Positions 12,837 to 36,368 of a stretch of DNA of 58,717 nucleotides are shown here, in pieces. Every line of letters starts with the position of its first letter. Position 1 is the stretch's first letter. The translations under genes were made by a program, and so were the position numbers. This DNA comes from a bacterium. Its GTDB lineage: Bacteria; UBP6; UBA1177. The notes under the pieces were generated by a model. The model did not search any database and was not told the origin of the DNA. It saw only the letters and a program-made list of their open reading frames with translations. Where the stretch lies: NCBI GenBank assembly GCA_017538365.1, contig JAFYIZ010000025.1:1-58717 (forward strand), written 5' to 3'.

Positions 12837-12863
12837 GAAGCCGTTTTTTCGAAGGAGAAAATG

Positions 12864-15329
12864 ATGTTCATAAAAAACAGTCCGAATATAGCGATAGTCA
12901 CTGAGAATTCAGAAATTTCCTACACCGATTTACTTAAAACTGTCGCACTTTTTTCAGATATTCTCGGAAAACTCGACGGCAAAAGAGTTCTTATCATTAG
13001 CGAGAACAGACCTGAATACATCTATGCGTTTTACGGAATATGGAAATCTGACGGAATCGTAGTTCCCGTTGATTTCATGAGCACTCCCGATGAAATCGCC
13101 TACATCATCAACGACTGCTCTCCCGATGCGGTTTTCTTTTCGGAGAAAGTTCGGGAAAATGTCGTAAAAGCAATAGAAATTGCGGGGAAAACCAAGATAA
13201 AAAAAATCGTTTTTGAAGATATTCAAGGCGATATTTCAAAATATGAAGCTGCTGATTTCGACGTTGAAGACAAGGAAAAAACCTCACTTATAATCTACAC
13301 TTCAGGAACGACAGGCTCTCCGAAAGGGGTCATGCTCAGTTGCCGCAACATCATGGCTAACATGGATGCGCTTCAGGAATGCGGATACTACACACAAAGC
13401 GATGTCGTTCTGATGATACTTCCGCTTCACCACGTTTTTCCGCTTCTGGGAACAGTCGTAGCACCGCTTCTCGGCGGTGGAAGAGCTGTCATCTGCCCGT
13501 CGCTTCAGGCTTCAGACATCGCGAAAATGATGGAAAAAAGCCATCCGACAATGATTCTTGCAGTTCCCAGATTCTACGAAATGCTGATGAAGGGAATAAT
13601 GCAGAAAATAAACTCGGGATTTCTGACAAAGGCGATATTCAACATCGCCAAAATCGCCAACAACACCGCTTTTTCAAAAATAATCTTTAAATCGGTTGCT
13701 AAAAAATTCGGCGGCAATATGAAGCATTTCATCTGCGGCGGAGCAAAATTAGATCCTGAAGTCTGGAACTGCTTCAAAGTACTCGGTTTTTCAATCGGCG
13801 ACGGCTACGGAATGACCGAGGCAAGCCCGATGATAACCTTCCCGCGCCCCGGCAAAGGCAAAGCCGGCTGCGTCGGCACGGAACTCTCGAAAGGAACAGT
13901 CAAAATCGTTGACGGCGAAATCGTTGCGACCGGAAAAAACATCATGAAAGGCTACTACAACCGTCCCGAAGAAACTGCCGAAGTCCTGCGTGACGGATGG
14001 CTTTACACCGGCGACCTCGGACACTTCGACAAAGAAGGAAATCTCTGCATCACCGGCAGGAAAAAAGAGATAATCATCCTGGGCAACGGAAAAAACGTAA
14101 ATCCGACCGAGATCGAACAGGATATCGAAAGAAGCGACTCTTTGATAAAAGAAATCGCAGTGATTGCAAAAAACGGCGTTCTCTGCGCCATTATCAGACC
14201 AGATGAGAAAGTACTTGCAGAACGGCAGATCCCGAACCTTGAAGAATTCATCCGCTGGGAAATCATCGACAAATACAATTCAACGGCTTCACACCACAAA
14301 AAGATACTTGATTTTGTCCTTACGAACCAGCCGCTGCCGAGAACGAGGCTCGATAAAATCCAGCGTTTCAAACTCGAAGATTTCCTGCAGCATAAAGACG
14401 AAAAACGGGCTGAAAGCGATGTTCCCGAGACCAAAGAATATAAAAAAATCGCCGGTTATATCAGAAAAACGACCGAAAAAGACGTTTTCCCCGACGACCA
14501 CATCGAAATAGACCTTGGTCTCGACTCGCTTGACAAAATCGAGCTGGCATCGTTTATAAATTCGGAATTCGGCATAAAAATCACCGAGACCGACATTCAG
14601 AATCTGGCAACAGTGCGTAAAATCGCCGATTTCACGTCAGAACGCGAAAGCAAAAAAGCCGACAGCACAAAACAGGACTGGAAAACGGTTCTCAGAGAAA
14701 ACCTCAACAACATGGAACTTCCGCGAAGCGCTTTTTATCACAGACTCCTCAGATTCAGCCTCGTTGCGGCAGTCAGAACATTTTTCAAAGTGCGCTTTTC
14801 CGGCACGGAAAACATTCCGAAAGGACCCGTTATATTCGCGGCGAACCACCAGAGCGTAGTCGATGCCCTTTTCGTGCTGGCAAAAATTCCGGCGAAAGAG
14901 TTCAAACGGACTTACTGCTTTGCAAAAGGGAAGCACTTTCAGCAGTGGTGGCGCAGATACATGGCAAAACGCAACAACATCATAATCATGCGTGAAGACG
15001 AAGAGATCGTCGATTCGATAAAACGGATGGCCTCAGTCCTCAAAAAAGGGCGTAACGTCCTCATTTTCCCTGAAGGAACACGCAGCCGCGACGGCGGTTT
15101 GGGCGATTTCAAACAGACTTTTTCACTTCTTGCCTGTGAAATCAATGTTCCGATTGTTCCTGTAGCAATCGACGGCGCGTTTGAAGCGTTTCCGCGCAAC
15201 AGAAAGTTTCCACATCCCTTCAAAAAAATCACCGTCACATATCTTCCTCCGATAAGTCCGGAAGGAAAAACCAGAGAAGAATTGGCGGCGGCAGTCAAAA
15301 AAGCGATCGAAGAAAAAATCAAAAAATAA
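12864..15329 (+). CDS. Trifunctional acyl-adenylating ligase / acyl carrier / PlsC acyltransferase fusion
   Basis: Three-domain protein of 821 aa. Residues about 1-500 are an AMP-forming acyl-CoA/acyl-ACP synthetase (YTSGTTGSPKG phosphate loop, GYGMTEASP, LYTGDLG, GRKKEIIILGNGKNVNP). About 530-600 is an acyl carrier domain with the phosphopantetheine serine in DLGLDSL (Ser555). About 640-821 is a PlsC acyltransferase with NHQSVVD (H-x4-D, His662) and FPEGTRSRDG. The likely job is to activate a free fatty acid, load it on the built-in carrier and transfer it to lysophospholipid or glycerol-phosphate, similar to Aas but with its own carrier. Tandem ATGs occur at 12861 and 12864; I prefer the second, 6 nt from AAGGAG. 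No transmembrane signal is clear. Confidence 0.88.
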   Translation: MFIKNSPNIAIVTENSEISYTDLLKTVALFSDILGKLDGKRVLIISENRPEYIYAFYGIWKSDGIVVPVDFMSTPDEIAYIINDCSPDAVFFSEKVRENVVKAIEIAGKTKIKKIVFEDIQGDISKYEAADFDVEDKEKTSLIIYTSGTTGSPKGVMLSCRNIMANMDALQECGYYTQSDVVLMILPLHHVFPLLGTVVAPLLGGGRAVICPSLQASDIAKMMEKSHPTMILAVPRFYEMLMKGIMQKINSGFLTKAIFNIAKIANNTAFSKIIFKSVAKKFGGNMKHFICGGAKLDPEVWNCFKVLGFSIGDGYGMTEASPMITFPRPGKGKAGCVGTELSKGTVKIVDGEIVATGKNIMKGYYNRPEETAEVLRDGWLYTGDLGHFDKEGNLCITGRKKEIIILGNGKNVNPTEIEQDIERSDSLIKEIAVIAKNGVLCAIIRPDEKVLAERQIPNLEEFIRWEIIDKYNSTASHHKKILDFVLTNQPLPRTRLDKIQRFKLEDFLQHKDEKRAESDVPETKEYKKIAGYIRKTTEKDVFPDDHIEIDLGLDSLDKIELASFINSEFGIKITETDIQNLATVRKIADFTSERESKKADSTKQDWKTVLRENLNNMELPRSAFYHRLLRFSLVAAVRTFFKVRFSGTENIPKGPVIFAANHQSVVDALFVLAKIPAKEFKRTYCFAKGKHFQQWWRRYMAKRNNIIIMREDEEIVDSIKRMASVLKKGRNVLIFPEGTRSRDGGLGDFKQTFSLLACEINVPIVPVAIDGAFEAFPRNRKFPHPFKKITVTYLPPISPEGKTREELAAAVKKAIEEKIKK

Positions 15330-17728: not shown

Positions 17729-19285
17729 TTACTTGTTATAAATTTTTATGCGGCCGACTTGTGTTTTTGCGAAAGTTCCGTTCGCCTTCATATAGTCGAC
17801 AAGGATCGAAGAAAGAAGATAAGCGGTGTCTTTCTTTGATTTGATTTCTTTAAGCATCGTGTATCCGTCGCCGCCGTTTGCAATAAACGAGTTGAGAGCG
17901 ACTTTGTATTTTTTCGCCTTTTCGAGCGGTTTGCCTGCGACTTTGACATCAAGCGCATCACCTTTCAAAATCTTCATTTCGATACCGGAAACCTGAAGGA
18001 ATCCGCCTGCACCGACACCTTTCTGAGCAAAGAAATCAAGAATGTCCTGAATCTGAGCACCGGTAAGTTCAGCCGTGTAAACAGTATCCTGGAACGGGAA
18101 AATGCTATAGATGTCTTTTTCTGTAACAGCACCTTTCTTGAGCGACTGTCTGATGCTTCCGCCGTTCAGGAAAGCGATGTCTGCTTTGGTTTTTTCACGC
18201 ATAATGTCGGTGATGATGTCGCCGAGTTCGACCTCTTTCTTTCTTGCGATATCTTCGCTGCCGTCAAGATTTCTGTCGATCGTGCCGATCTGCTTGGTCG
18301 AAAATTCGCATTTGAAACCGTTGAGCATATCGACCATAGCCTTGTTTTCTTTGATCGCTTCGCCGATAAGTTTGGAACCTTTATCCGTTTTTTCCTTGAG
18401 ATTGATCGGGTAAAGTTTGTATTCGGTTTTTACGATTCTGGTGCCCTGGAAGTAGAAATCGATTCTGCCGACCCATTTGCCCAAACCTTCAGTCTGAACG
18501 ATGTAGGTATCGCCGATTTTTACCGGGCTTTCAAGCTGTCTCTGAGTGTGGCCGCCGACGATGAGATCGATGCCCTGAACAGCTTTTGCAAGGTAGTTGT
18601 CACCTTCGTAGCCGTCAAAACTTTTGTCGCTGTCGTAGAAACCGAGGTGGCTGAGAACGATAATGACATCGTTTTTCTTCTTCAGAATCGGAACCCACAT
18701 TTTTGCGGTTTCGATAGGATCGCTCATCGTAAGGTTTCCTTTGATGCCCTGGCTCGAAATGCTTTCGGTTTCACGAGTCGTAAGACCGAGAACGGCAACT
18801 TTGAGTCCGTCATCCATCTTCTTTTCGATGTAGTTTTTACCAACAGACTCTTCACCGCCTTCTTTGTACATATTTGCACTGAGGAACGGGAATTTTGCCG
18901 TTTCCTGCATTTTTTTGAAAGCGTCGAAACCGAAGTCGAATTCGTGGTTTCCGATAGTCATTGCGTCGTAACCGACAAGGTTCATACCTTCTACCATCGG
19001 GATATTTTCACAGATATTGCTTCTCGGATCGCCGAGCGTGATGTCGCCGGCACTGAGAACTAAAACACTTCCGCCTTTGCCCTGAACTTCGGCCCTGATG
19101 TCGTCCACAAGAGTCTTCTGAGCTGCAAGACCGCCGATTCCCTGATTGTGCGGCTCGTCAAATTTCCAAGCCATACCGTGAGAATCATTGGTAAAAATAA
19201 CTGTGAGCAGACGATCTTTGTTGTCTGCGCCGAAAACCGTCATAACTAAAAGAATGCAAAAAACAGCAACGAGAAATTTTCTCAT
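17729..19285 (-). CDS. Secreted 5'-nucleotidase / UDP-sugar hydrolase (UshA family)
   Basis: Periplasmic metallophosphoesterase of 518 aa with a clear Sec signal peptide (FLVAVFCILLVMTVFG, cleavage near residue 20). The N-terminal calcineurin-type domain shows TNDSHG, GDITLGDP, GNHEFDFG, LSHLG and GGHTQ metal motifs; the C-terminal 5'-nucleotidase domain carries FLNGGSIR and GGDGYTM. It releases nucleosides from nucleotides for salvage. The start overlaps the stop of the gamma-carbonic anhydrase gene (ATGA). A second family member with a membrane anchor lies at 45921-47711. The downstream PfkB kinase could complete a salvage pathway. Confidence 0.93.
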   Translation of the reverse strand: MRKFLVAVFCILLVMTVFGADNKDRLLTVIFTNDSHGMAWKFDEPHNQGIGGLAAQKTLVDDIRAEVQGKGGSVLVLSAGDITLGDPRSNICENIPMVEGMNLVGYDAMTIGNHEFDFGFDAFKKMQETAKFPFLSANMYKEGGEESVGKNYIEKKMDDGLKVAVLGLTTRETESISSQGIKGNLTMSDPIETAKMWVPILKKKNDVIIVLSHLGFYDSDKSFDGYEGDNYLAKAVQGIDLIVGGHTQRQLESPVKIGDTYIVQTEGLGKWVGRIDFYFQGTRIVKTEYKLYPINLKEKTDKGSKLIGEAIKENKAMVDMLNGFKCEFSTKQIGTIDRNLDGSEDIARKKEVELGDIITDIMREKTKADIAFLNGGSIRQSLKKGAVTEKDIYSIFPFQDTVYTAELTGAQIQDILDFFAQKGVGAGGFLQVSGIEMKILKGDALDVKVAGKPLEKAKKYKVALNSFIANGGDGYTMLKEIKSKKDTAYLLSSILVDYMKANGTFAKTQVGRIKIYNK

Positions 19286-19872
19286 TTTACGCCCCCTGAT
19301 TTATCAAATGTTAAACTTTCGATGACCCGTTTCATATCAGCCGCACAATATATTGAATCTTTTGAAGAAGTCAAATAGTTACGCGCATATCTTGCATAAT
19401 TCTGTGCAGACTTTTTCAAACCTTCGATCTCTTCAGCCGTAACTTCGCGTTTTATTTTGGCTGGATTGCCCGCTACGAGAACGCCTTCGGGGATTTCCGT
19501 GCCACCCAGAAGAACCGAATTTGCAGCAATTATCGAGTTTTTCCCGATTTTGCATCCGTCGAGAACGACCGCTCCCATTCCGATAAGAACGTTTTCTGCG
19601 ATTATCGAACCGTGGATCACGGCGTTGTGACCGACCGTAACGTCGTCTCCGATGACTGTCGGATAAAGTGCCGTCGTAACATGGATCGTCGCATTGTCCT
19701 GAATGTTCGTCCTTTTTCCGATTTTGATGCTGTTGACGTCTCCGCGGACGACCGCGCCGAACCAGATGCCGCTTTCGGCTCCTATAGTTACATCACCGAT
19801 TACGTCGGCGGTTTTGAAAATCACCGCTTCAGGATCGATATTCGGAATTTTCTCAAGATAGTTTGTTATCAT
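19282..19872 (-). CDS. Gamma-class carbonic anhydrase-like hexapeptide protein
   Basis: Left-handed beta-helix protein of 196 aa from the gamma-carbonic anhydrase/YrdA/PaaY family. Hexapeptide repeats run from about residue 20 to 145, and the zinc-binding histidines are visible in NATIHVTT and GHNAVIHG. A C-terminal helix (AEEIEGLKKSAQNYARYARNY) is usual for the family. I take the ATG at 19872, with GAAGGAG upstream; an in-frame extension to 19932 is lysine-rich and overlaps the neighbour. The start overlaps the preceding gene by 20 bp and the stop overlaps the nucleotidase start. Whether it hydrates CO2 or is an inactive family member is not decidable here. Confidence 0.88.
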   Translation of the reverse strand: MITNYLEKIPNIDPEAVIFKTADVIGDVTIGAESGIWFGAVVRGDVNSIKIGKRTNIQDNATIHVTTALYPTVIGDDVTVGHNAVIHGSIIAENVLIGMGAVVLDGCKIGKNSIIAANSVLLGGTEIPEGVLVAGNPAKIKREVTAEEIEGLKKSAQNYARYARNYLTSSKDSIYCAADMKRVIESLTFDKSGGVK

Positions 19873-20272
19873 TTTTTTCTCCTTCTTTTTCTTTATCTTC
19901 ATCTTCAAATTCTTCCAGAACTTTGTCGGCATCGCTTTTTACAGCGACCAGCGAGGATGAAAGCAGCAGCAGTCCGATGATGGAAAGCACCGCAAAAATA
20001 GAAGGCGCGTGCTCGGCCTGAGAAAGCCTGTTGGATGCCGCCATGCATTTCCGCGCAATCTTTTTCTGCTCTTCATAACTCAGATCCTTCCATGAATCTG
20101 GCGCCTTGTCGGCAAAGCATGTTCCGCTTGCTTTAAGCTCTTCGTACTCGGCCCGCGCGTCGTCTCTTGCATACAGCATCCAGCAGAGCGCAACGATGCT
20201 GACTACCGAAATAATCAGACCGTAAAAGCCTCTTCTTGTTCCCAAAACACGTTTTTTAAGAGAGTTTTCCAT
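19853..20272 (-). CDS. Hypothetical small membrane protein
   Basis: Protein of 139 aa that I do not recognise. It has two membrane helices (about 14-36, FYGLIISVVSIVALCWMLYA, and about 92-112, IFAVLSIIGLLLLSSSL) around a loop with two cysteines (GTCFADKAP, ARKCMAASN) that could pair if it faces the periplasm. The tail is highly charged (FEDEDKEKEGEKND). A GGAGG site directly precedes the ATG and overlaps the end of the SNF2 gene, so the gene looks real and coupled to its neighbours. No function is suggested. Confidence 0.7.
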   Translation of the reverse strand: MENSLKKRVLGTRRGFYGLIISVVSIVALCWMLYARDDARAEYEELKASGTCFADKAPDSWKDLSYEEQKKIARKCMAASNRLSQAEHAPSIFAVLSIIGLLLLSSSLVAVKSDADKVLEEFEDEDKEKEGEKNDNKLS

Positions 20273-20280
20273 GTAACCTC

Positions 20281-23187
20281 CTATTCAAATGCCAGATCGG
20301 CAACCATTCTTACAAAGTCTTCACTCGGTTCTTTCAGGCTCTGCGAAAGGAAAAAGTCGATCATTCCGCGCTTTTTCTGGTGCAGGTTGAGAATTTTTTC
20401 TTCGATCGTTCCCTTTGAGTAAAGCTTTGTAACAACGACTTTTTTAGTCTGACCGATCCTGTGGGCGCGCGACCATGCCTGCTCTTCTACTGCGGGATTC
20501 CACCAGGGATCGACAATGATTACATGATCCGCTCCGGTGAGATTTAAGCCCACGCCACCGACTTTGAGACTGAGCAGAAACGCATTTTTCTCGCCGTTAT
20601 TGAACTTTTCGACAAGTTCCATGCGCTCTTTCGTGTCGCCGTCCATATAAAAATATTCCGTTCCGTCAGCACGGAAAGCAGTTTCAATTATTTTGAGCAT
20701 CTTCACATACTGGCTGAAAATCAGCACTCTGCCGCCGCCTGAGAAAATCTCTTCGCAAAGTTCCCGCACAGCAGCAATTTTTCCGGAAAGTTCCGGATCA
20801 AGCACACCTTCTGTCGCAAGAGAAGGATGGTCTGCGGCAAGTCTGAGCTTTGAAAGCAGAGCCAGAATCTCGATTTTGTTTATCGAGTCTCCGCGGTCGA
20901 TAAATTCAGCCTTTCCCCTGAGCATCGCAGAAAGGTAAACATCTTTCTGTTTCGGCGTCATTTCGACCGGACACTCCTTGATTATAAGCTCTGGAAGCTC
21001 GTCCAGAATCTCGTTTTTAAGGCGTCGCAGAATAAACGGAGCCGTTTTTTTGCGGAGAATATCAAGTTCCTCGTTGTTCCCGATCTTCTCCATTTTGTCG
21101 ACATCCTTTCTGCTGCCGAGATAGTCCGGCATGATGAAGTGGAAAATGCTCCAAAGGTCGCTCACATGGTTTTCAAGCGGCGTTCCGGTGAGGGCAAAAC
21201 GGTGCTTCGAATTGAGCGAATTGAGTATTCTGAAGCGCTTCGTATTGTTGTTTTTGATCTGCTGCGCCTCGTCGATGATTATCGTCTCGAAAAATTTGTC
21301 CTTTACCAGCGAAAAATCGTTGATAATGACAGAATACGACGTGATTATGAGCTCTTTTCCTATGCTTTTCCACTTTGCGACCCTCTCTTCCGGCTTGAGC
21401 GAATCGATGACCGTACGCTTCATGCCGGGGAAGAACTTATCAATCTCGCGGTCCCAGCTCCAGACAAGGGTTTTAGGGCAGACAACAATGGAGGGCATAT
21501 CACCCGTTTCCGATTTTATCATGCAGAGAGACTGAAGCGTTTTGCCGAGACCCATTTCGTCGGCAAGAACACCGCCCAGACCTAACGCTTTGAGAAGCGA
21601 CATCCACCTGAAACCTTCGATCTGATACTTTCTGAGCGGAATTCCCTTGAGATGCGTCTCGTCAGGATGCGGAAGTTCCCCTTTTGCCAGTGAATCAAAA
21701 ATCGAGATATATTTCTTTTTCGCTTCGGCTGAACCCGTGAAATTTTTAAGAATTTTCCTGTTTTTAGCCTTTAAAAGCCCGACAAGGTTCGCGACCGGAA
21801 GTTTTTCGCCGTCGGTATAAAGCGCCGAACCTATCATATCTGCGACTTTTGCAAGAAAATCTGAGCTGTTTTCAAGAATCACAGGTTTTCCTTCGGTATC
21901 GTTTACTACCGGTTCTTCGATGCCGCGCTCGAACTGCTTGACAGCTTCAACAAGCGACGATGACGGAATAAAATCTGACATCTGCGGCAGTTTGATGTTG
22001 AACGAAAACCACTGTTCGTCCGAATTTACGTCAAGAACTATCTCCGACTTTTCTGCTGCCGCCTGCGGGATGTTGACCTTTTTGATCTCCTGCTCGTTTA
22101 CGACCGTACCTATCTGCGAAAGAGCGCTTTCGGGCGAAATTATCCTCGAATATTCCTGCATCGGAACGACGTATGAATTTTTGAAAAGCCTGAAACCGTC
22201 ACTGGCGAGAGCCGACTTTATATTTTTGACAAGCTGAGGATCAATCGAATAGATGCGCCCGTTTACCGGATACTTCTGCTCGAGATTCTTTTTTCTCGGC
22301 TGAAATTCGATCGACGTTCTGCCGTTTTTAAGAAAGATCTTCAGGAAGACTTTTCCTTCGCGAAGCTCTGTCTTGAAAACGACATTCGTGTTTTCGTCAA
22401 GCTCTATTTTCTTGAGGTTGAAGACGCCGCTCAGCACAACTTCGGGGCTTAAACTGTCGCTGAGATCGGAAACCGCTTTGATGAGAGCCTCTTTTCTGGA
22501 ATAACCTATCGTTTTTCCGACAAGAGCAGAAACTGTGTCTCTGATCCCTGCCGGGAAACGCCATACAGCACCTTCGTCACAGTCGATTGCAACACCGTTT
22601 TTTTCGGAATAAAAAACACTTTCCGGCATTGAAAAATCAATTCCCTCGGAATCGACATCGTACGAAAGAATCAGCGGATGTTCAGCCGGAAAAAGCTGGA
22701 GCTGCCCCAGAACGAACTTTTCAGGATAAAGCGAAACCAGAAGAAGCGGATCTTCGCCTGCAAAAAGCGAAGAGAGCCTTTTGAGCTGAAGATCGCCGCC
22801 GTTTTCGATTTTTACCGAGCTGCTTTTTCTGTCGAGCAGAAGTTTGAAAGGAGCCTCTGCCTTGTGAGTATCCTTTTTCACGTTGAAGCGCGAAAGCTGT
22901 TCCGAAATATCGGTGTTATCCATCGAGAGATCGTTGAAAGCAAGCGCGACGCCGACAACATGAGCACAGATACCGTCACTGTGGCATGAACAGACACTGT
23001 TGAAAAGATTGCCGAACTCGTCTATTTCGAGTCTGACATCGCATCCGCCCGCAGAACCCTGCACGAACGTGATTCCCTCTTTGACAGATACCGAAAGTAT
23101 CATTGTGGAATTCTGCCCGTGCAGAGCGCATCCGTCGAAATACGAATCGGAAGCTACAAGATCTGCAAGGCGGATAACGACAGACAT
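20281..23187 (-). CDS. SNF2-family helicase/ATPase with N-terminal SWIM zinc finger
   Basis: Large DNA/RNA-dependent ATPase of 968 aa. A SWIM-type zinc finger lies near residues 50-80 (CSCHSDGICAHVVG: C-x-C...C-x-H). A long middle region (about 100-480) matches the bacterial SNF2-associated layout. The ATPase core begins near 520 with LADEMGLGKTLQSL (Walker A), then IIIDEAQQIKN (Walker B), LTGTPLENH, and the C-terminal lobe with ILIFSQYVKM-like and WSRAHRIGQ motifs. Bacterial relatives (RapA/HepA-like) remodel RNA polymerase or DNA complexes; the exact role is not known. It lies 16 bp after the pyrophosphatase gene with no strong ribosome-binding site. Confidence 0.9.
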   Translation of the reverse strand: MSVVIRLADLVASDSYFDGCALHGQNSTMILSVSVKEGITFVQGSAGGCDVRLEIDEFGNLFNSVCSCHSDGICAHVVGVALAFNDLSMDNTDISEQLSRFNVKKDTHKAEAPFKLLLDRKSSSVKIENGGDLQLKRLSSLFAGEDPLLLVSLYPEKFVLGQLQLFPAEHPLILSYDVDSEGIDFSMPESVFYSEKNGVAIDCDEGAVWRFPAGIRDTVSALVGKTIGYSRKEALIKAVSDLSDSLSPEVVLSGVFNLKKIELDENTNVVFKTELREGKVFLKIFLKNGRTSIEFQPRKKNLEQKYPVNGRIYSIDPQLVKNIKSALASDGFRLFKNSYVVPMQEYSRIISPESALSQIGTVVNEQEIKKVNIPQAAAEKSEIVLDVNSDEQWFSFNIKLPQMSDFIPSSSLVEAVKQFERGIEEPVVNDTEGKPVILENSSDFLAKVADMIGSALYTDGEKLPVANLVGLLKAKNRKILKNFTGSAEAKKKYISIFDSLAKGELPHPDETHLKGIPLRKYQIEGFRWMSLLKALGLGGVLADEMGLGKTLQSLCMIKSETGDMPSIVVCPKTLVWSWDREIDKFFPGMKRTVIDSLKPEERVAKWKSIGKELIITSYSVIINDFSLVKDKFFETIIIDEAQQIKNNNTKRFRILNSLNSKHRFALTGTPLENHVSDLWSIFHFIMPDYLGSRKDVDKMEKIGNNEELDILRKKTAPFILRRLKNEILDELPELIIKECPVEMTPKQKDVYLSAMLRGKAEFIDRGDSINKIEILALLSKLRLAADHPSLATEGVLDPELSGKIAAVRELCEEIFSGGGRVLIFSQYVKMLKIIETAFRADGTEYFYMDGDTKERMELVEKFNNGEKNAFLLSLKVGGVGLNLTGADHVIIVDPWWNPAVEEQAWSRAHRIGQTKKVVVTKLYSKGTIEEKILNLHQKKRGMIDFFLSQSLKEPSEDFVRMVADLAFE

Positions 23188-27083: not shown

Positions 27084-30000
27084 TCATATTTTCTTGATCA
27101 GCTTTTCATACATTTTGAAAAGTTCCGCAACGATTTCGGCTTCACTCATTTTCGTGCTGAATCCGTAAGCCTGCATGACGGCTTTGTCATTTTCTTTGTG
27201 GGCTTTGCGGAGTTCCGGCGGCATCAAGTTTTCATCATACAAATCGGCAAGCGAGGAATCGGGATATTCTGCCCTTGCGTCAAGAATTGCCTGAGCGGTT
27301 TGCTCGATTTTATCTCTATATTCCTTGCCTCGCCTTTTAGGAGAGGTGGCAGTATCACTGCCGGAGAGGTCAGGCCATGGAAAGTTGTTGTAAACGATGT
27401 CTTTCGAATAGCGGTATCGCATTTCGAGACGACCGCAGACGGCGCGCATCCAAGCCATGTGGACAGAACTTGTCAAAACACCGAAGTGGTACAGTGTTGC
27501 GTTCGGAATAATTTGAACAGAATCATTTACAATAACATCGTGATTTATAAAACCGATCGGAATATAGCGGCGGCGTTCTGATGAAACTCGGGGAACAAGC
27601 AGATAATTTCCACTTTCAGGTTGCCTGATTTCTTGAAACAACGCAGGAAGTTCCGCACTTTTTCGAGTTGCTTCCTTTGAACTCGCAAGACGAAATTTCC
27701 GCACACTCTCAATGCGTTTCATAATAAGCATGAGTCTTTTTATTTCACCGGGATTTGCTCCCACGAGCCACAGGCAATAACGCTTCTTGTTGTTGATGAA
27801 TTCCTCCGATCCGAGGATTTGTTTGATGAATTTTGATGAACCTGGTTCCTTATTTTCAAATTTAACTTTTTCTTCCTCTGAAAGAAATAAAAAACCTCCG
27901 TCGGCAGGTTTGTTTCCGTAAACCATCTGCGGCACATCACAAAATGATTTTTCGCGGCTTTCAACAAATATATTCGGGGCATCAATCAAATAGCTGTTGA
28001 TATTTGCAGCTTCGATAAGGGTTTCATCTGTGTTGAAAATACAAGGTTTATGCGGATTTCCGTTTTCCTGACAGGAAAATCCTATAATTACGCAATGAAC
28101 ATGAGCTTTCTTAGTCGATTCAGAATCCCATCGGAAAGTACGCCATGCAAAATCAAAACGGATGTTGAAGCGTTCAAAAATCGGTTTCCAAATACTCGAG
28201 ACCTGCTCTCCCTGTGTGATCGAATTTGTCGAAACGAATGCACAACGGGTATTTGTTCCACGAATCAATTCTGCCGCTTTGAAATACCAGCCGGACACAT
28301 AATCAATTTTGCCGGCAGTTTTATAAGATTTTCCTTTTTCGTCGGTAAAAACAGACAAAATGTCTTTCTTCTGCGTTTCTGACTGCAGAGAATATCCGAC
28401 AAACGGCGGGTTTCCCATTATGTAGTTATAATGATTTGCTTCTTGTTTCCGCTGCGGTTTTCCGACATTTATCTCATTTGTGATCAGATTTATTTCGTCA
28501 TATTCGAATCCGTGTTCTTTATCGGAAAAGGTGTCTGAAGCACAGTATTCAGGTGCTGCCTCCCTGACCACCATAAAAGGATAAACTAGATTTGTTCTTT
28601 TTGCCTTTATTGTCGGAATTTCAGCTTCTTCGTGCAAGTATCTCCAATCCATGCGGAGAGCATTGCCTTCAACAATCGTCGCGCTTGTGGAAAGGGGCAG
28701 AAAATCAAGATTCTGTTCAACGATTTCTTCGGTTTCCTTCATCATCTGACTTTCGGCAATCCAGAGCGCGGTTTTTGCGACAGTCACCGCAAAATCGTTT
28801 ATTTCGATGCCGTAAAACTGCGAAATTTTCACTTTTATCGGTGAAAAATCCTCACTTGAAAGAAGCATCTGCGAGCCGTGAATAACTTTCAGGCATTCAT
28901 TTTCCAAACGTCTCAGAGAAATATAGGTCTCCGTCAGAAAGTTTCCGCTTCCGCAGGCGGGATCAAGGAAAGTTAAGGACGCCAATTTATTACGGAACTG
29001 CTCAAGACGATTTTTTGTTTTCGCCGTCATGTTGAACGAATGTGAAACATCTCTTTGAGATTCAACGCTTCGCTCAGAATGACGCGTTCCGACAATTTGT
29101 GCAAATTCAGTCTTCAAATCATCCAAAAACAATGGATCAATGACTTTGTGGATATTTGCAATGCTTGTGTAGTGCATCCCGCCTTTGCGTCGCGTTTCGG
29201 GGTTAAGTGTCGATTCAAAAACAGCCCCGAAAATAGTCGGCGAAATTTTTGACCAGTCAAAACCGGCACTCGCTTTGTTTACAAGAATATCAACAATTTC
29301 CTCATTAAATCTGGGGATCTCAATGTCACGCTCTGCAAAAAGTCCGCCGTTGACATACGGAAAAGCTGCAAGGTCATCGTTAAGATAAGGATCCCTGTCT
29401 TCAGGTTTTGTGTTTAAAACTGCGAACAGTTCCATCAGATTTTTCCTGACTTCATCAGGTCTGAACTTGGCTAAATAACGTCCGAACATATCTTTTTCGG
29501 CAAAAACTCCGGCATCTTCGGCATAGAGCAGAAAAACAAGCCTGACGCAGAGAATGTTGAGGCTGCGCAACTGTAAGTCAGACAGTTTGTCATCTTGAAC
29601 GAATGTGAAAGATCTCTCAGATTCTTCGCTTCGCTCAGAATGACGGCTAAGACGGGTTGGCGGAATATATTCTTTTATCAGCGCATCATAAAGTTTTCCT
29701 ACAAGTTCGCCCGCTTTAAGTGAAATCTGAGTTTCAGGTGGAATCAAGTCCTTTTCAGAATCGACTAAAAAACGTAAATCATCTATTTTTTCAGGCAAAT
29801 CTTTGAGCAGGATCTGAACAGGCTCGCCCTGAGGCATTTCCATATCGTAAATCAGAAATTCACTGAAATTGCATGTTATTATCCATCTCGGACGGTTTGA
29901 ATACGGCAGCTCGGACGAATATCTTTTCGCCTGCTGAAATGGCGTAAGGCTGCTGCCGTCGCTCTGTTTTATCGGTTTTCTCAAGTCTTTTCCGAGGCTT

Positions 30001-30233
30001 TTCTGCTCAATCATGACATGCGTCGAAGGAATGTAGGCATCGATAAAACTTGTGTGATCGAGGTGAACTTTGTCTTCAAAAACAATAAAATCGCTGATAT
30101 TTTCAACACAATACACCTTTTGAAGGAGCTCTATCCAAAAAAGCTGGCTTTCCCCCTTTTCATAACCTTTACCAAACCATTTTTCCGAAAATTCTTTTGC
30201 CGCTTTCTTCAGATTTATCTGATTTTTTGCCAT
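27084..30233 (-). CDS. MmeI-like (type IIL) bifunctional restriction-modification enzyme
   Basis: Single polypeptide of 1049 aa expected to both methylate and cut DNA. An N-terminal nuclease region shows a PD-(D/E)xK-like pattern: Asp65 in FIDAYIPS and E76-Q-K78 in MIEQKS. The amino-methyltransferase follows: motif I DPACGSGNF (Asp424) and motif IV GNPPF (Asn608). Residues about 800-1000 are the target-recognition region, with VPRVSSERRRYIPIGF and SSVHMAWMRAVCGRLEMRYRYS, typical of this family. Two copies of a 55-58 bp palindromic repeat lie in frame, encoding residues about 197-216 and 384-403. The ATG has GGAGCG upstream. No separate endonuclease or specificity gene is near. The recognition sequence cannot be read from this. 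Confidence 0.9.
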   Translation of the reverse strand: MAKNQINLKKAAKEFSEKWFGKGYEKGESQLFWIELLQKVYCVENISDFIVFEDKVHLDHTSFIDAYIPSTHVMIEQKSLGKDLRKPIKQSDGSSLTPFQQAKRYSSELPYSNRPRWIITCNFSEFLIYDMEMPQGEPVQILLKDLPEKIDDLRFLVDSEKDLIPPETQISLKAGELVGKLYDALIKEYIPPTRLSRHSERSEESERSFTFVQDDKLSDLQLRSLNILCVRLVFLLYAEDAGVFAEKDMFGRYLAKFRPDEVRKNLMELFAVLNTKPEDRDPYLNDDLAAFPYVNGGLFAERDIEIPRFNEEIVDILVNKASAGFDWSKISPTIFGAVFESTLNPETRRKGGMHYTSIANIHKVIDPLFLDDLKTEFAQIVGTRHSERSVESQRDVSHSFNMTAKTKNRLEQFRNKLASLTFLDPACGSGNFLTETYISLRRLENECLKVIHGSQMLLSSEDFSPIKVKISQFYGIEINDFAVTVAKTALWIAESQMMKETEEIVEQNLDFLPLSTSATIVEGNALRMDWRYLHEEAEIPTIKAKRTNLVYPFMVVREAAPEYCASDTFSDKEHGFEYDEINLITNEINVGKPQRKQEANHYNYIMGNPPFVGYSLQSETQKKDILSVFTDEKGKSYKTAGKIDYVSGWYFKAAELIRGTNTRCAFVSTNSITQGEQVSSIWKPIFERFNIRFDFAWRTFRWDSESTKKAHVHCVIIGFSCQENGNPHKPCIFNTDETLIEAANINSYLIDAPNIFVESREKSFCDVPQMVYGNKPADGGFLFLSEEEKVKFENKEPGSSKFIKQILGSEEFINNKKRYCLWLVGANPGEIKRLMLIMKRIESVRKFRLASSKEATRKSAELPALFQEIRQPESGNYLLVPRVSSERRRYIPIGFINHDVIVNDSVQIIPNATLYHFGVLTSSVHMAWMRAVCGRLEMRYRYSKDIVYNNFPWPDLSGSDTATSPKRRGKEYRDKIEQTAQAILDARAEYPDSSLADLYDENLMPPELRKAHKENDKAVMQAYGFSTKMSEAEIVAELFKMYEKLIKKI
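29026..29083. repeat. In-frame palindromic repeat, copy 1
   Basis: A 58-bp element with ends GTCATGTTGAACGAA and TTCGCTCAGAATGAC that form an imperfect inverted repeat. It lies inside the restriction-modification gene and is translated on the minus strand as part of RHSERSVESQRDVSHSF (residues about 384-403), just before the methyltransferase core. Confidence 0.85.
29589..29643. repeat. In-frame palindromic repeat, copy 2
   Basis: A 55-bp element with ends GTCATCTTGAACGAA and TTCGCTCAGAATGAC, closely related to the copy at 29026-29083. On the minus strand it encodes RHSERSEESERSFTFVQDD (residues about 197-216), between the nuclease region and the next helical domain. Confidence 0.85.
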
Positions 30234-32019: not shown

Positions 32020-32039
32020 GTTTTCAAGACCTGTTTTTT
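32018..32039 (+). terminator. Intrinsic terminator overlapping a convergent gene end
   Basis: A stem of AGGT/ACCT with a T-G extension (arms 32018-32022 and 32028-32032) is followed by G and six T residues (32034-32039). It begins within the TAG stop of the zinc-ribbon gene and runs into the last codons of the convergent glycerate kinase gene. The stem is short, so strength is uncertain. Confidence 0.5.
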
Positions 32040-33109
32040 CTCAAAAAAATTACGAAATCATTGAGATTGAGCCCGGTGTAGCCGCTTTTTACCGTCATTC
32101 CGTATTTATCGAGCAGTTCAGCTGAGTTGTAATTTTCAAGCGCTGACGCAATTTCGTTTTCGGGTATGGTTTTCAAGCCGCCTTCGACTATTGCTCCCGC
32201 AAAAGGCGAGTTTCCGTCTATACCGTCTGAAGAAAGGGCAAAAAGTTTCATTCCCTCTTTCAAAAAAGGAAGCATCGTAAGTGCGAAATGGCTCATTCTG
32301 CCCCCTCTTCCGGCATTTTTCGAACTTATTTTCAAAAGAGGTTCCCCTGTAATGAGAACACTTTCCGCACCCGCTTCAATCCTGCTCAAAAGAAGAGTTT
32401 TCAGTTCACTTACGCTTCCGGTAAAACGCCTGAAAGACTCAGTATTTTCAGGAAGCAGCCGGATAAGCGCATCGTGAAGCGAATCACTGTCGGCGCACTT
32501 GAAAAGACGGGCATTTTTCAAATCCTCTCTGTAAAAAGGCATGCTTCCGACAGCTTTTTCACCGTTTTCGAACGGAATATCGCTTGCAACGAAAACAAAC
32601 CACTCTACTCCGCCGAACATTTCAGCCAGTTTCCCGTTTTTTATGAGCGAATATTCACTTCTTCTTCTGTTGATTTCAGTTATCGGAAGCCCGCTTTTGA
32701 GCAGCATTTCGTTGATTTCGACCGCTTCTTTTTCATTTCCGCTTTTTTCAATGAGAGCAGAACTGCCGCCGCTGAGCAGTATGATCACATTCTCAGGATT
32801 GTGTTTTTTTATGAAGTTTATCAGCTTTTCAGCCGCCTCGAAACTCTTTTCAGTAAGGTGCGGATGACTTGAAAAAACTACATTTTCTTTTTTCAGGCTT
32901 CCTGTCTCACTTCCCAACGGAAGAACGGCGAAAACAGGCAGATGAGCAGCCTCGGGATACTGCGAAACAAACTTTTCATACATATAAGCCGCAGATTTTC
33001 CGACACTTACAACGACTTTCCGATCTTTTTCGCGGATACTTTCAAAAGCGGAGAAATCGAAAGGAAGATTTCTTAAAAAATTGAGATATTCGGTTGCCGA
33101 CTCAAACAT
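32024..33109 (-). CDS. Glycerate kinase type 2 / MOFRL-family protein (short form)
   Basis: Cytosolic protein of 361 aa, expected to phosphorylate glycerate (usually to 2-phosphoglycerate), though relatives are annotated hydroxypyruvate reductase. The nucleotide-binding region has VIILLSGGSSALIEKSG, and the C-terminal MOFRL part shows GRGGRMSHFALTMLP and LSSDGIDGNSPFAGAIVEGG. Usual family length is 410-450 aa, and the N-terminal domain here looks trimmed. I start at the ATG at 33109, which overlaps the acyltransferase stop by 8 bp; a frame open to 33163 overlaps it much more. It ends the glycolysis-led operon, where making a 3-carbon phosphoglycerate would fit. Confidence 0.8.
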   Translation of the reverse strand: MFESATEYLNFLRNLPFDFSAFESIREKDRKVVVSVGKSAAYMYEKFVSQYPEAAHLPVFAVLPLGSETGSLKKENVVFSSHPHLTEKSFEAAEKLINFIKKHNPENVIILLSGGSSALIEKSGNEKEAVEINEMLLKSGLPITEINRRRSEYSLIKNGKLAEMFGGVEWFVFVASDIPFENGEKAVGSMPFYREDLKNARLFKCADSDSLHDALIRLLPENTESFRRFTGSVSELKTLLLSRIEAGAESVLITGEPLLKISSKNAGRGGRMSHFALTMLPFLKEGMKLFALSSDGIDGNSPFAGAIVEGGLKTIPENEIASALENYNSAELLDKYGMTVKSGYTGLNLNDFVIFLRKNRS

Positions 33110-33941
33110 TATTGAAAGTTCTGCACTTTGTGTTGTTCTTTCTGTATTCGGCATCTGCGGCAAGGATCTCTTCCTCGATCTTGTCGGTTATGCGCTTTGC
33201 AGCTGCAGGCGTAGGCATTCCGGCGTAGTCTGAAATTTTTATTTCGGGAAGAAGCTGAAAATCATAAAAATACTCTTCCACAGGGTTGTAGGAAAAGAGC
33301 GGATCGTGCTTGCCGAGACCGTGTTTGTCGCTTCCGCCGATGAAAACGGGAAGAACATCGCATCCGGCATGAAGTGCGATTCGCGCGGCGCCTTTCTGGT
33401 AAACATTCCTTTTAAAGCGCGGTGTCCGCGTTCCTTCCGGAAAAATGAGAACGTTGTTTCCGTTGTCCAAATCCTCTTTGCACGCCTTGAAAAGATCATC
33501 GTAATTCTCATCGTTCGTAATGTAGATCTGGCTGATTATGCCGACATAAGGCGTTCTTGTAAGATTGGCCCGTACTATGCAGTTGGCGTTCGGAACAAGT
33601 GCCGTCATGCAGACAAAATCTAAAAGTGACGGATGGTTTGCGACTATCACCTTCCCTTTCATGCTGCTCAACTTCTCCATTTCGGGCACATTCATCTCCA
33701 CAATGTCTGTTATTCTGAGCATGAAAAGAAATCGCTTGAAGACATTGGAAACATATCTTCTCGCCTTCACAAAAAAGTCGTTTTTCTCTTTTGAAAAGAG
33801 CCTGATGACTGGAAAAATAAGGAAACCGATCACCATCGAGCCGAAAACGATGTAGAGTATCGCTGCGATCTTCCCCAGCGAATGGTAGCAGTACCAGAAA
33901 ATGTTGTTGATTTTCGGCAGATTCGAGGGAGTTTTAAACAT
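33102..33941 (-). CDS. PlsC-family lysophospholipid acyltransferase
   Basis: Membrane-associated acyltransferase of 279 aa. An N-terminal helix (GKIAAILYIVFGSMVIGFLIF) is followed by the catalytic H-x4-D in VIVANHPSLLDFV, the NLTRTPYVG block and VLIFPEGTRTPRF. It would transfer an acyl chain to a lysophospholipid or related acceptor. Its start overlaps the ketoacyl-synthase-like gene by 8 bp. PlsC-like acyltransferases next to a ketoacyl-synt_2 protein and a methyltransferase are a recurrent part of aryl-polyene/flexirubin clusters, so the acceptor may be specialised; ordinary phospholipid synthesis is the alternative. Confidence 0.88.
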   Translation of the reverse strand: MFKTPSNLPKINNIFWYCYHSLGKIAAILYIVFGSMVIGFLIFPVIRLFSKEKNDFFVKARRYVSNVFKRFLFMLRITDIVEMNVPEMEKLSSMKGKVIVANHPSLLDFVCMTALVPNANCIVRANLTRTPYVGIISQIYITNDENYDDLFKACKEDLDNGNNVLIFPEGTRTPRFKRNVYQKGAARIALHAGCDVLPVFIGGSDKHGLGKHDPLFSYNPVEEYFYDFQLLPEIKISDYAGMPTPAAAKRITDKIEEEILAADAEYRKNNTKCRTFNNV

Positions 33942-34599
33942 TGCTTTTCCACCTCTTCAAAAGAGCCTTCAAAAAATCAACCGGCGATTTTTCTTCAATA
34001 ATATCATCAAGTTCAACATTATTTTCAGTTTTTTCGCAACTGAGAAGAGCAGCAAAAGAAAGCGGAGTCGAATCAACGACGTAACATTCAGGAACAAGCT
34101 CGTCGGCATAAACCAAAAGCACCTCTTTTTCCGAACCGCTTTTCACTGCAGCTAAAGCAGTTTTCAAGGCGGAAGAGAAATCTCCTTTTGACGGATATAT
34201 TGCCGAATAACCTCCCGTGAGACCGAATGCAATCGCCGCAAGAGCAACCGGAGTATTGAAAACAGAGAGCGAAAAACCTGCCGGAAGTATCGTTTTTTCT
34301 TCGATTATCCCCTGATTTATCGAAAATTCGCGTGCAATCTCACCTCGGAGAGAAACAAAAATAACTTTTGTCTCTTTATTTAAGCCGTATTTTTCTGAAA
34401 AATCGTGAATAACGTGAACTGTCATCTTCGAAATCTGGCTCAGTCTGCGCCTGAACATCGGATCGGTGTATTCAAGTTTAGGAGCAGTCTTCGATTTTTC
34501 AATTTCAGCTGCGCCTAAAAGCCATTTTTCCCATTTTTCAGGGTCGGCCTCAAGCCCGGGAGCCCACATTACAGGTTTTGAAATGAAAACTTCGCTCAT
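33934..34599 (-). CDS. Beta-ketoacyl-synthase-like protein (ketoacyl-synt_2, chain-length-factor type)
   Basis: Protein of 221 aa resembling the truncated, non-catalytic ketoacyl-synthase N-domain (PF13723). Visible marks are the N-terminal tryptophan-rich stretch, DPMFRRRLSQISKM, KVIFVSLRGEIAREFSI, LPAGFSLSVFNTPVALAAIA and VLLVYADELVPE. The position of the catalytic cysteine of a real ketosynthase is not conserved. Such proteins pair with true ketosynthases in aryl-polyene and flexirubin clusters; no true ketosynthase or carrier protein is encoded nearby. The start overlaps the methyltransferase stop (ATGA). Confidence 0.8.
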   Translation of the reverse strand: MSEVFISKPVMWAPGLEADPEKWEKWLLGAAEIEKSKTAPKLEYTDPMFRRRLSQISKMTVHVIHDFSEKYGLNKETKVIFVSLRGEIAREFSINQGIIEEKTILPAGFSLSVFNTPVALAAIAFGLTGGYSAIYPSKGDFSSALKTALAAVKSGSEKEVLLVYADELVPECYVVDSTPLSFAALLSCEKTENNVELDDIIEEKSPVDFLKALLKRWKSNV

Positions 34600-35708
34600 G
34601 CCTTTTTGAATACAAGCAGTGAATAAGAGTTCGAACCGATGTTGTGGTGCGCGCAGTCAAGTTTGAAACCGCCTTCGCATATTGCGTCGCAGAGCTCTTT
34701 AAAGCGGTACATCTTGCTGTTTCCGTTTGCAATGCAGGTGAAATAAAGCGAAGTTGCCTGCAGCGAATATGCCGCTGCCTGGAAACGCTGCTTGTCCCAG
34801 AGAGGTTCCAGAACATAAACTTTCGTTTTTTCGTTTGCCGCAACATATATTTTTTTCATTATTTTCGTTATCTGGTGAAGCGAGAAGCAGTCAAGAAACT
34901 GGCTCATCCAGAAAGCGTCTGCATTTTCGGGAAGTTTCGTCGATTCGTGGAGAATGTTCCCTTCGCAGTAGGAAATTCTGTCAGCAAAGCCCTCTTTTTT
35001 CGCGTTTTCGGCAGCAACTTTCGTCTGACCCGGAAGATCGGCGATTATCATTTTGACGTTTTTGTCATATTTGCAGCACGCAATCGACCATTTTGCCGTG
35101 TTTCCGCCGATATCGACTATCGTTTTCGGGTTATCTGCAAAAACTATCGGAAGCGCTTCGGGAAAGGCAATGTCGGAATAGAAGTGGTCAAAATCGAACC
35201 AACTTTTTTTCGCCTTTTCGGGAAGCGTCGAGAGCGCCTCGTAAACAGTCACCCACTTGTCACCGAAGACTTTCAGTCCTTCGGGTTTTCCGTTTTTTAC
35301 CGATTTTTCGAGGTCGAACGAGCCCTGGAAGCAGATATCGTTCGTGAAACGGAAATTGACACGGGTGAGGTCGTCTTCAAGCAGCATCCAGCCTATTTTG
35401 CCAAGAACGAATTTTTCATTTGCTTCATCTGAATCTGCGGAAAGTTTGAGAACATTCATACCCAAAGCCATTTCGCACAGAACCGAAATTCCGTAAAGCG
35501 AAACGCCCGATTTTTCAGCGATTTCAGCAGCCGTTATACCGGAATCCCCTGAATCTTCGATGATTTTCATGATTCCGAGCTCAAGAAGCGAATTCACTGC
35601 CTGAAACGCAAGCGGAGCAAACGCGATTTTCTGCGCTTCGAACTTTGCATCAACGCCGCGGATATCGTCTTTTTTGAAATTTTCATAAGAAAAATAAGCC
35701 TTATCCAT
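34596..35708 (-). CDS. SAM-dependent O-methyltransferase-like protein with dimerisation domain
   Basis: Protein of 370 aa. An N-terminal winged-helix-like dimerisation region (about 20-100, AAEIAEKSGVSLYGISVLCEMA) precedes a class I methyltransferase domain with motif I IVDIGGNTAKW, MIIADLPGQT and a C-terminal region with QATSLYFTCIANGNSKMY. The layout is that of plant-type/acetylserotonin O-methyltransferases and of methyltransferases found in aryl-polyene-type clusters. It would methylate a small, probably aromatic hydroxyl. It starts 12 bp after queE ends and overlaps the ketoacyl-synthase-like gene. Confidence 0.83.
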   Translation of the reverse strand: MDKAYFSYENFKKDDIRGVDAKFEAQKIAFAPLAFQAVNSLLELGIMKIIEDSGDSGITAAEIAEKSGVSLYGISVLCEMALGMNVLKLSADSDEANEKFVLGKIGWMLLEDDLTRVNFRFTNDICFQGSFDLEKSVKNGKPEGLKVFGDKWVTVYEALSTLPEKAKKSWFDFDHFYSDIAFPEALPIVFADNPKTIVDIGGNTAKWSIACCKYDKNVKMIIADLPGQTKVAAENAKKEGFADRISYCEGNILHESTKLPENADAFWMSQFLDCFSLHQITKIMKKIYVAANEKTKVYVLEPLWDKQRFQAAAYSLQATSLYFTCIANGNSKMYRFKELCDAICEGGFKLDCAHHNIGSNSYSLLVFKKA

Positions 35709-35720
35709 GCCAAACCTCTT

Positions 35721-36368
35721 TTATTCTATACCAAGAATTTTGTGCAGCTGGAGCTGCAGTCTGATATTTTTGTGACTTTTTACGAATTTTTCGACTGCCG
35801 AAAACCAATCTTTTCCCTGTTCGAAAACAGGACTTAAATATGTTTCGATTCCGTCAAGAAATTTGAGCTTTTCTTCAACAAAATCGAGATCTTTTTCTGT
35901 TTTCACAACGAATTTTATCCACCCTGCCCCGCTTTTTTTCAAAAAATTGATGTTCCTTTCGTCAAAAACGGGATTTCCTGAAGCGGGAGTTTTCCAGTCT
36001 GTCGAAAAAAAGAGCTCCGAATCTTTTTTAGCCGCCGAGAAAGCGCGGTAAAGCGGCTCGAGCTCAAAACTTCCGTTCGTTTCAAGCGATATCCTTTTTC
36101 CAGAAAGCAGAATGAGAAATTTAAGAAGTTCGTTTTCCTGACACATCGGCTCCCCGCCGGTGATGCATAGATCCGGAACATCTGATTTATTCAGCTTTTC
36201 AGCCGCTTCTTCGGGAGTCATAAAATAAAAAGAATCTCCCGAAAGAGTGTATTTCGTGTCGCAGTATGAGCAGTTTAAATTACATCCGAAAAACCTTATA
36301 AAATCAGACGGATAACCCTGAAATCTTCCTTCGCCCTGAATTGACTGGAATATCGAATTGAGCTTCAT
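35721..36368 (-). CDS. queE: 7-carboxy-7-deazaguanine synthase QueE
   Basis: Radical SAM enzyme (215 aa) that contracts the ring of 6-carboxytetrahydropterin to 7-carboxy-7-deazaguanine in queuosine biosynthesis. The QueE-type SAM cluster motif is seen as CNLNCSYC, preceded by SIQGEG and followed by ITGGEPMCQ and SLETNGSF. The C-terminal SPVFEQGK and QLQLHK are usual for the family. It starts 3 bp after the ftcD stop. Other queuosine genes (queC, queD, queF, tgt) are not in the window. Confidence 0.93.
   Translation of the reverse strand: MKLNSIFQSIQGEGRFQGYPSDFIRFFGCNLNCSYCDTKYTLSGDSFYFMTPEEAAEKLNKSDVPDLCITGGEPMCQENELLKFLILLSGKRISLETNGSFELEPLYRAFSAAKKDSELFFSTDWKTPASGNPVFDERNINFLKKSGAGWIKFVVKTEKDLDFVEEKLKFLDGIETYLSPVFEQGKDWFSAVEKFVKSHKNIRLQLQLHKILGIE

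What the first reader, a model, noticed from the sequence alone, without database searches (positions are those of the whole stretch)
33102..35708. Aryl-polyene-like triad without the rest of the cluster
A PlsC acyltransferase, a ketoacyl-synt_2 protein without catalytic cysteine and an O-methyltransferase overlap each other in one operon. These three types recur in aryl-polyene/flexirubin clusters, yet no ketosynthase, carrier protein, dehydratase or ammonia-lyase is seen here. The organism may have a split cluster or a reduced pathway making a methylated aryl lipid.
Basis: partly seen in the sequence, partly recalled or inferred. Interest (0 to 1): 0.55.

Follow-up and report, generated by a model that had tools for sequence, protein, structure and literature searches.

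The report
Scattered aryl-polyene pigment genes
Three overlapping genes that looked like an orphan fragment are the detached first block of a nearly complete aryl-polyene (membrane pigment lipid) pathway whose other blocks lie elsewhere in the genome of an uncultured bacterium with ruminant-gut relatives, and the genes look most like those of gut spirochaetes.

Summary
The triad is real (minus strand): methyltransferase 34596-35708, chain-length-factor-like half ketosynthase 33934-34599, PlsC acyltransferase 33102-33941, overlapping by 4 and 8 bp. They match E. coli ApeB, ApeC, ApeD in that order. The "missing" genes are in the same genome: 16 of 18 E. coli Ape proteins (all but A and N) have a counterpart, in blocks that keep E. 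coli order: BCD (window), EF-GH-I-J-K and PQR (contig C8), LMO (C30); an ammonia-lyase is on C10. So this is a split, nearly complete aryl-polyene pathway, not a reduced one. The no-Cys protein is a chain length factor: its predicted fold is closest to ApeC. In three relatives the triad sits head-to-head with the EF-GH-I block, as in many Treponema loci; here it follows queE by 12 bp. It is under purifying selection (dN/dS 0.04-0.18). The genus (UBA1177, candidate phylum UBP6, inferred from record titles) shares the methyltransferase with none of 13 other phylum genomes searched; the closest kept relatives outside it are spirochaetes (63-75% identity), suggesting horizontal transfer, direction unsettled. 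The kind of system is known; host lineage and dispersed layout are the additions. No product has been measured.

The parts
34596..35708 (-). ApeB-like SAM-dependent methyltransferase (FlxJ-like by profile), expected to methylate the aryl head group
   Evidence: Pfam Methyltransf_2; NCBIfam FlxJ_fam_MTase 437 bits, below cut-off 560; 45% identity to E. coli ApeB, residues 2-351 of 352, E 4e-112; PDB 3dp7 E 2e-91
33934..34599 (-). ApeC-like chain length factor: half-size ketosynthase without Cys-His-His, expected partner of the ApeO-like KS on contig C30
   Evidence: PF13723 106 bits; phmmer best PDB hit 6qsp_B; model pLDDT 90.9, best fold match 6qsp_B (ApeC) Z 18.0, then Foldseek 7f28; E. coli ApeC 28%, E 2e-14
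33102..33941 (-). ApeD-like PlsC (lysophospholipid) acyltransferase, expected to help attach the polyene to its lipid anchor
   Evidence: PF01553 61 bits; E. coli ApeD 28%, E 5e-31; NHPSLLD and FPEGTR stretches kept in the alignment with ApeD (that these are the acyltransferase motifs is recalled)
35721..36368 (-). QueE-like radical SAM gene immediately upstream of the triad, 12-bp gap; context, not part of the pathway
   Evidence: NCBIfam QueE models, below their cut-offs; gap; same order FTCD-QueE-MT in G015, G017, G020 and L132

Best explanation
The triad is the apeB-apeC-apeD block of an aryl-polyene (APE) lipid pathway that is broken into separate blocks in this genus. Proposed working: a tyrosine-ammonia-lyase-like enzyme (C10) supplies 4-coumarate; the fused ApeG-ApeH protein (C8) loads it on the ACPs; the ApeR-like KS (C8) and the ApeO-like KS (C30) paired with the window's CLF elongate it with malonyl units; KR and two dehydratases (C8) make the conjugated polyene; the window's methyltransferase methylates the aryl ring; the window's PlsC and the ApeJ-like glycosyltransferase/acyltransferase pair build the lipid; LolA-like and MMPL proteins (C30) move it outward. 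Shown here: gene identity, intact frames, block order, conservation, purifying selection on the triad. Inferred: every enzymatic step, the pairing of the CLF with the C30 KS, the starter unit, and the product.
For: E. coli order A-R (PMC8253772 Table 1, passages read; RefSeq features): 16 of 18 E. coli proteins have their best match in the expected gene among 24 proteins chosen from this genome (one of the 24, the glycerate kinase, was out of frame), and blocks BCD / EF-GH-I-J-J-K / LMO / PQR keep the order. ApeO-like KS: best PDB match 6qsp_A; ApeR-like KS: 4ewg and 7f27 (AbApeR, PMC8358021); Cys and His motifs intact in both. One dehydratase hits Pfam ApeI-like over its cut-off. PF00109 has three places in the genome: the fatty-acid FabF and these two. 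Triad head-to-head beside the EF-GH-I block in L136, L139 (=G019), L140 (=G013). Methyltransferase and CLF each in 13 of 15 genus genomes (G021's methyltransferase is a 47-residue contig-end piece). The two without, G011 and G016 (77 and 72% complete), also have only one PF00109 place and one PF00221 place each, so the genes come and go together. dN/dS 0.04-0.18 in 15 of 15 gene pairs, no stops.
Against: No chemistry. ApeN (DUF3261) was not found in the genome and ApeA had no match among the 24 proteins (not searched genome-wide). CLF, ApeI-, ApeP- and ApeL-like proteins are only 22-32% identical to E. coli's (E 1e-8 to 1e-14). The second ACP is just under the Pfam cut-off (20.1 vs 20.8) and the LolA-like and ApeJ-C-like proteins have no Pfam hit. 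The ammonia-lyase has the TAL/PAL-type Gln at motif 2, but at the place that I take for motif 1 it has Tyr-His, not the His of TALs (column placed by recall); a close relative was found in 3 of 7 spirochaete genomes that carry the methyltransferase and CLF, not in 4. In G024 (59% complete) the reductase is missing between the P and R genes. The genome is a 49-contig draft: distances between blocks are not measured in it.
Confidence: 0.9

Rival explanations
1. Reduced pathway: only the triad works, making a simple methylated aryl lipid without a polyene chain.
For: In the window itself no other pathway gene was found.
Against: The core genes are present with open frames elsewhere in the same genome and in relatives; a chain length factor is not expected to act without a ketosynthase (inference).
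Confidence: 0.03
2. Flexirubin-type pigment: the polyene is esterified to a dialkylresorcinol rather than built into an APE lipid.
For: Methyltransferase best profile is FlxJ, LolA-like protein hits LolA2_flexi, KR hits FlxB, an ammonia-lyase is present.
Against: FlxJ, FlxB, LolA2 and FlxA hits are all below their cut-offs (437/560, 272/340, 49/125, 364/700 bits). DarB: two weak partial matches only, on the C8 ketosynthase and FabF, far below cut-off. DarA was not searched.
Confidence: 0.05
3. The triad is a decaying or bystander remnant carried along beside queE.
For: It stands apart from the other blocks and has different upstream neighbours in different species.
Against: dN/dS 0.04-0.18 against five relatives, no stops; the triad order is kept in 10 of 10 loci of the genus.
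Confidence: 0.02

Closest known systems
E. coli CFT073 aryl polyene cluster apeA-R (and X. doucetiae ApeO-ApeC, structure 6QSP)
   Same: Same set of enzymes and same gene order within blocks; CLF is a half-size ketosynthase
   Different: Split into blocks; ApeG and ApeH are one protein; ApeJ is two proteins; ApeN and ApeA not found; an ammonia-lyase gene and no chorismate lyase (PF04345) in the genome
Aryl-polyene clusters of gut Treponema (one Treponema_D genome reported with such a cluster, PMC8863827, passages read)
   Same: MT-CLF-PlsC triad in 62 of 70 spirochaete loci; first-ACP gene divergent from it in 31 of 70, within 1 kb in 24; closest kept relatives outside the genus
   Different: In the UBP6-like genus the triad is often detached and placed behind queE; CLF only 38-62% identical
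Flexirubin pathway of Chitinophaga pinensis (flxA-Y plus darAB; PMC3992019, passages read)
   Same: Ammonia-lyase start and ring methylation are the proposed parallels
   Different: DarB not found; FlxJ, FlxA, FlxB profile scores below cut-offs

Membership tests
Aryl polyene (ape) pathway | KS-chain length factor pair of ApeO-ApeC type | tested here: met
   CLF: 6qsp_B and 7f28 by sequence and fold; KS on C30: best PDB hit 6qsp_A, then 7f28_B. That the two bind each other was not testable
Aryl polyene (ape) pathway | Second, FabB-like ketosynthase ApeR | tested here: met
   KS on C8: 4ewg 6e-136, 7f27 (AbApeR) 3.5e-127; 50% to E. coli ApeR
Aryl polyene (ape) pathway | Two ACPs, acyl-ACP synthetase, ketoreductase, two dehydratases | tested here: met
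   Best matches for E, F, G and H (one protein), Q, I, P; ApeI-like Pfam 39.7 bits, cut-off 28.5; second ACP 20.1 bits, just under its Pfam cut-off 20.8
Aryl polyene (ape) pathway | Methyltransferase ApeB and acyltransferases ApeD, ApeJ | tested here: met
   ApeJ's two parts are separate genes here
Aryl polyene (ape) pathway | Outer-membrane transport proteins ApeL, ApeM, ApeN | tested here: inconclusive
   ApeL and ApeM counterparts found; DUF3261 (ApeN) not found in the genome, but the controls rang only below the cut-off, so the model's reach is uncertain
Aryl polyene (ape) pathway | Aryl-polyene product | not testable with these tools
   No chemistry available
Flexirubin pathway | Dialkylresorcinol gene darB | tested here: not met
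   No match over cut-off in a 97.6% complete genome
Flexirubin pathway | Dialkylresorcinol gene darA | not tested
   No search made
Flexirubin pathway | FlxJ and FlxA equivalog models | tested here: not met
   437 vs 560 bits; 364 vs 700 bits
Active beta-ketoacyl synthase (for the 33934-34599 protein) | Cys-His-His triad | tested here: not met
   Alignment with two KS and FabF of this genome and E. coli ApeO, ApeR, ApeC

The most novel reading that the evidence does not exclude
An ancestor in this UBP6 genus acquired a whole aryl-polyene cluster, plus a tyrosine-ammonia-lyase-like gene, from a gut Treponema, then took the cluster apart while keeping the core genes under selection. In several species the apeBCD block was captured by the queE operon (12-bp gap here), so that chain length control, ring methylation and lipid attachment are driven from a housekeeping operon while the rest keeps its own promoters. 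The result would be a coumarate-started aryl polyene made from several unlinked operons.
Probability: 0.4. Interest if true: 0.5.

Novelty: new member of a known kind. Interest (0 to 1): 0.33.

Why it matters
It shows that a small orphan-looking block can belong to a nearly complete natural-product pathway whose parts are dispersed, which mining by contiguous cluster could miss or under-call. It puts aryl-polyene genes in a lineage of candidate phylum UBP6, for which one search of the held papers found none that name both. It gives a comparative series, head-to-head in some species and detached in others, for studying how clusters come apart, and it suggests exchange of envelope-pigment genes between gut spirochaetes and another phylum.

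Tried and rejected
Reduced-pathway reading: rejected after the genome inventory. Flexirubin reading: DarB not found, Flx profiles below cut-offs. The lyase on C16 as starter enzyme: it scores over the cut-offs of histidine ammonia-lyase models and has Glu at motif 2, so set aside. UbiC-type 4-hydroxybenzoate supply: PF04345 not found; XanB2-type supply not tested. The AMP-ligase/ACP/PlsC fusion at 12861-15329 as pathway ligase: E. coli ApeH matches it at E 0.016 only, set aside.

Direction of transfer: in the quick 82-row tree the UBP6 rows lie inside the spirochaetes, in a set of 36 rows with SH-aLRT 98. In the careful 47-row tree the UBP6 clade is 100/100 but the fork joining it to its nearest spirochaete rows is weak (62/62), and an AU test did not reject the spirochaete rows as one side of a branch (p 0.103). 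The only outgroup, E. coli ApeB, is on a very long branch. So nesting is not shown.

Errors of mine: the first CFT073 stretch did not hold the ape genes; the second did. The glycerate kinase and PGK references, and the kinase, were out of frame; the kinase was redone in frame and no pathway claim rests on the faulty rows. Papers: searches on split or separate aryl-polyene clusters gave listings in which I saw nothing of this layout; of these I opened one for the word split (PMC8776678, passages), where it meant other things. PMC9769736 and PMC12918008 were read in passages and used for no claim.
Full report
What is there. The window is the whole of contig C24 of a 2.32 Mb, 49-contig draft genome, 97.6% complete. 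On its minus strand three genes overlap: a methyltransferase at 34596-35708, a 221-residue Ketoacyl-synt_2 protein at 33934-34599 and a PlsC acyltransferase at 33102-33941. The overlaps are 4 and 8 bp, and the methyltransferase starts 12 bp after a queE-like gene. Downstream a MOFRL-type glycerate-kinase-like gene starts at 33109 and overlaps the end of PlsC.

The no-cysteine protein. It aligns with E. coli ApeC and with the ketosynthases, but has no residue equivalent to the catalytic Cys and stops before the two His motifs; ApeC lacks them too. Its best solved relatives by sequence are 6qsp_B (3e-10) and 7f28_A (2e-5), the ApeC partners in the ApeO-ApeC structures of X. doucetiae and A. baumannii (PMC8358021, passages read). 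A model from 42 sequences has mean pLDDT 90.9. Of 1000 chains aligned, 6qsp_B is first (Z 18.0, rmsd 3.7, 205 residues); Foldseek puts 6qsp_B and two chains of 7f28 first. That paper describes AbApeC as one thiolase-fold domain, about half a ketosynthase, which fits the length here.

The rest of the pathway. PF00109 has three places in the genome: FabF beside an ACP on C35, one KS on C8 and one on C30. Reading the neighbourhoods gave these blocks. C8 4094-9198: ACP, ACP, membrane part fused to an acyl-ACP synthetase, ApeI-like dehydratase, glycosyltransferase, acyltransferase, thioesterase. C8 about 17938-20445: dehydratase, FabG-type reductase, ketosynthase. C30 (L012 7962-12161): LolA-like protein, MMPL exporter, ketosynthase. 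C10 (L014 8516-10090): an ammonia-lyase, with an AMP ligase nearby. The 18 E. coli CFT073 Ape proteins were compared with 24 proteins chosen from this genome (not the whole proteome; one of the 24 was out of frame): 16 of 18 matched the expected gene best, ApeA and ApeN matched none. Within blocks the order equals that of E. coli: B-C-D, E-F-GH-I-J-J-K, L-M-O, P-Q-R (PMC8253772 Table 1; RefSeq features).

Is the split real? In G015, whose methyltransferase is 96% identical, PQR, EF-GH-I-J-K and LMO lie in one direction within 5721-37273 of a 67-kb contig, with other genes between, and the triad is on another contig. In G020 the same three blocks lie within 106532-139905 of a 670-kb contig and the triad at 90148-92751 of a 296-kb contig (all), so at least about 190 kb apart even if these contigs met at their nearer ends. 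FTCD-QueE-MT order recurs in G000, G015, G017, G020 and L132, which makes a misassembly unlikely. In 3 of 10 loci of the genus from the named collection (L136, L139, L140) the triad is head-to-head with the first ACP gene, within 1 kb. In L134 and L138 it follows other open frames that end 13 bp upstream. In G012 the M and O genes lie beside PQR; in G024 LMO lies beside P and R, with no reductase found between them.

Distribution and origin. Of the ten loci that I count to the genus, two record titles name UBP6 (UBA1196, UBA1177), one says Spirochaetales and the rest say bacterium; many come from rumen or gut samples. PMC7820578 lists rumen genomes of UBP6, genus UBA1177, and PMC11382960 gives UBP6 as Candidatus Asafiota (passages read). 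That G000 belongs there is my inference; its record is not named. The methyltransferase is in 13 of 15 genus genomes and 0 of 13 others of the phylum. The CLF is in 13 of 15, with weak matches (29-33% identity) in 3 of 10 other genomes of the order. The two genus genomes without them, G011 and G016, also have a single PF00109 place and a single PF00221 place, so they may truly lack the pathway, although they are 77 and 72% complete. The C10-type lyase scores (505-512 bits) recur in 11 of 15 genus genomes.

Outside the genus, the 70 kept loci all have titles of Treponema or other spirochaetes, with MT-CLF in 69 of 70 and the full triad in 62 of 70; two of the eight without it (L154, L208) have under 700 bases left in the locus. 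Identities to this genome: methyltransferase 63-75%, first ACP 67-84%, C8-type KS 30-72% (median 64; the low value probably another KS), CLF 38-62%, PlsC 35-55%, LolA-like 23-39%. As a yardstick, ClpX is 56-60% in 7 spirochaete genomes. The ammonia-lyase is 83-85% in 3 of those 7 and has no match in 4, against 33-35% for lyases beside KS genes in three sister-genus genomes. The high identity of methyltransferase and lyase, the absence from the rest of the phylum and the shared layout point to transfer between lineages; the lower identity of CLF, PlsC and LolA does not add to that. The trees do not settle direction. GC of the blocks (0.45-0.50) is near that of the window (0.46), so composition gives no sign of a recent arrival.

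How it probably works. The steps are inferred from E. coli and X. doucetiae work as told in PMC8253772 (passages read): loading of an aromatic starter, elongation by ApeO-ApeC and ApeR, reduction and dehydration, head-group methylation by ApeB, release by ApeK, attachment by ApeD and ApeJ, export by ApeL, ApeM and ApeN. For the starter, chorismate lyase (PF04345) was not found, while the C10 lyase has the ASG motif and a Gln where HutH of the same genome has Glu; PMC3992019 gives Gln for TAL/PAL and Glu for HAL, and says that FlxA resembled HALs at the other motif yet acted on tyrosine. So 4-coumarate is my favoured starter, at moderate confidence, weakened by the absence of this lyase in 4 of 7 spirochaetes with the triad's first genes.

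Function kept. Against five relatives per gene, dN/dS was 0.047-0.093 (methyltransferase), 0.131-0.184 (CLF) and 0.042-0.087 (PlsC), without internal stops.

Novelty. An aryl-polyene cluster in a gut Treponema has been reported (PMC8863827). A search for aryl polyene with UBP6 gave no paper, in a library that lacks most subscription journals. The pathway type is known; the host lineage, the dispersed blocks and the queE placement are the additions.

Noticed in passing
window 27084-30233 (-): An MmeI-type restriction-modification gene holds two in-frame copies of a short interspersed repeat (translated RHSERSEESERS and RHSERSVESQRD) in the linkers between its N-terminal, helical and methyltransferase domains; similar copies lie at L010:16886, L011:17679 and L015:14408 of the same genome.
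   Followed up: partly
window 12861-15329 (+): A single protein joins an AMP ligase, a carrier-protein domain and a PlsC acyltransferase; it is not the best match of any E. coli Ape protein and its role is unclear.
   Followed up: partly
window 32024-33109 (-): A glycerate-kinase-like gene overlaps the end of the PlsC gene here, while its homologue (77-86% identical) lies 1.5-1.7 kb beyond PlsC in G013, G014, G017, G019 and G020 and about 3 kb beyond in L132.
   Followed up: partly
L133 (record CAMZDX010000114.1): Its methyltransferase is 95% but its CLF only 70% identical to the window's, which suggests recombination within the triad or a mixed bin.
   Followed up: no
G007:C214, G008:C2, G010:C84: Sister genera have an ammonia-lyase followed by a reductase and a ketosynthase, a different and distant aryl-polyene-like arrangement.
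   Followed up: no
L134 and L138, upstream of the triad: In two other species the triad follows different large open frames that end 13 bp upstream, one that looks like a CoA-dehydratase activator and one SIR2-like (names recalled from the sequence, not searched).
   Followed up: no
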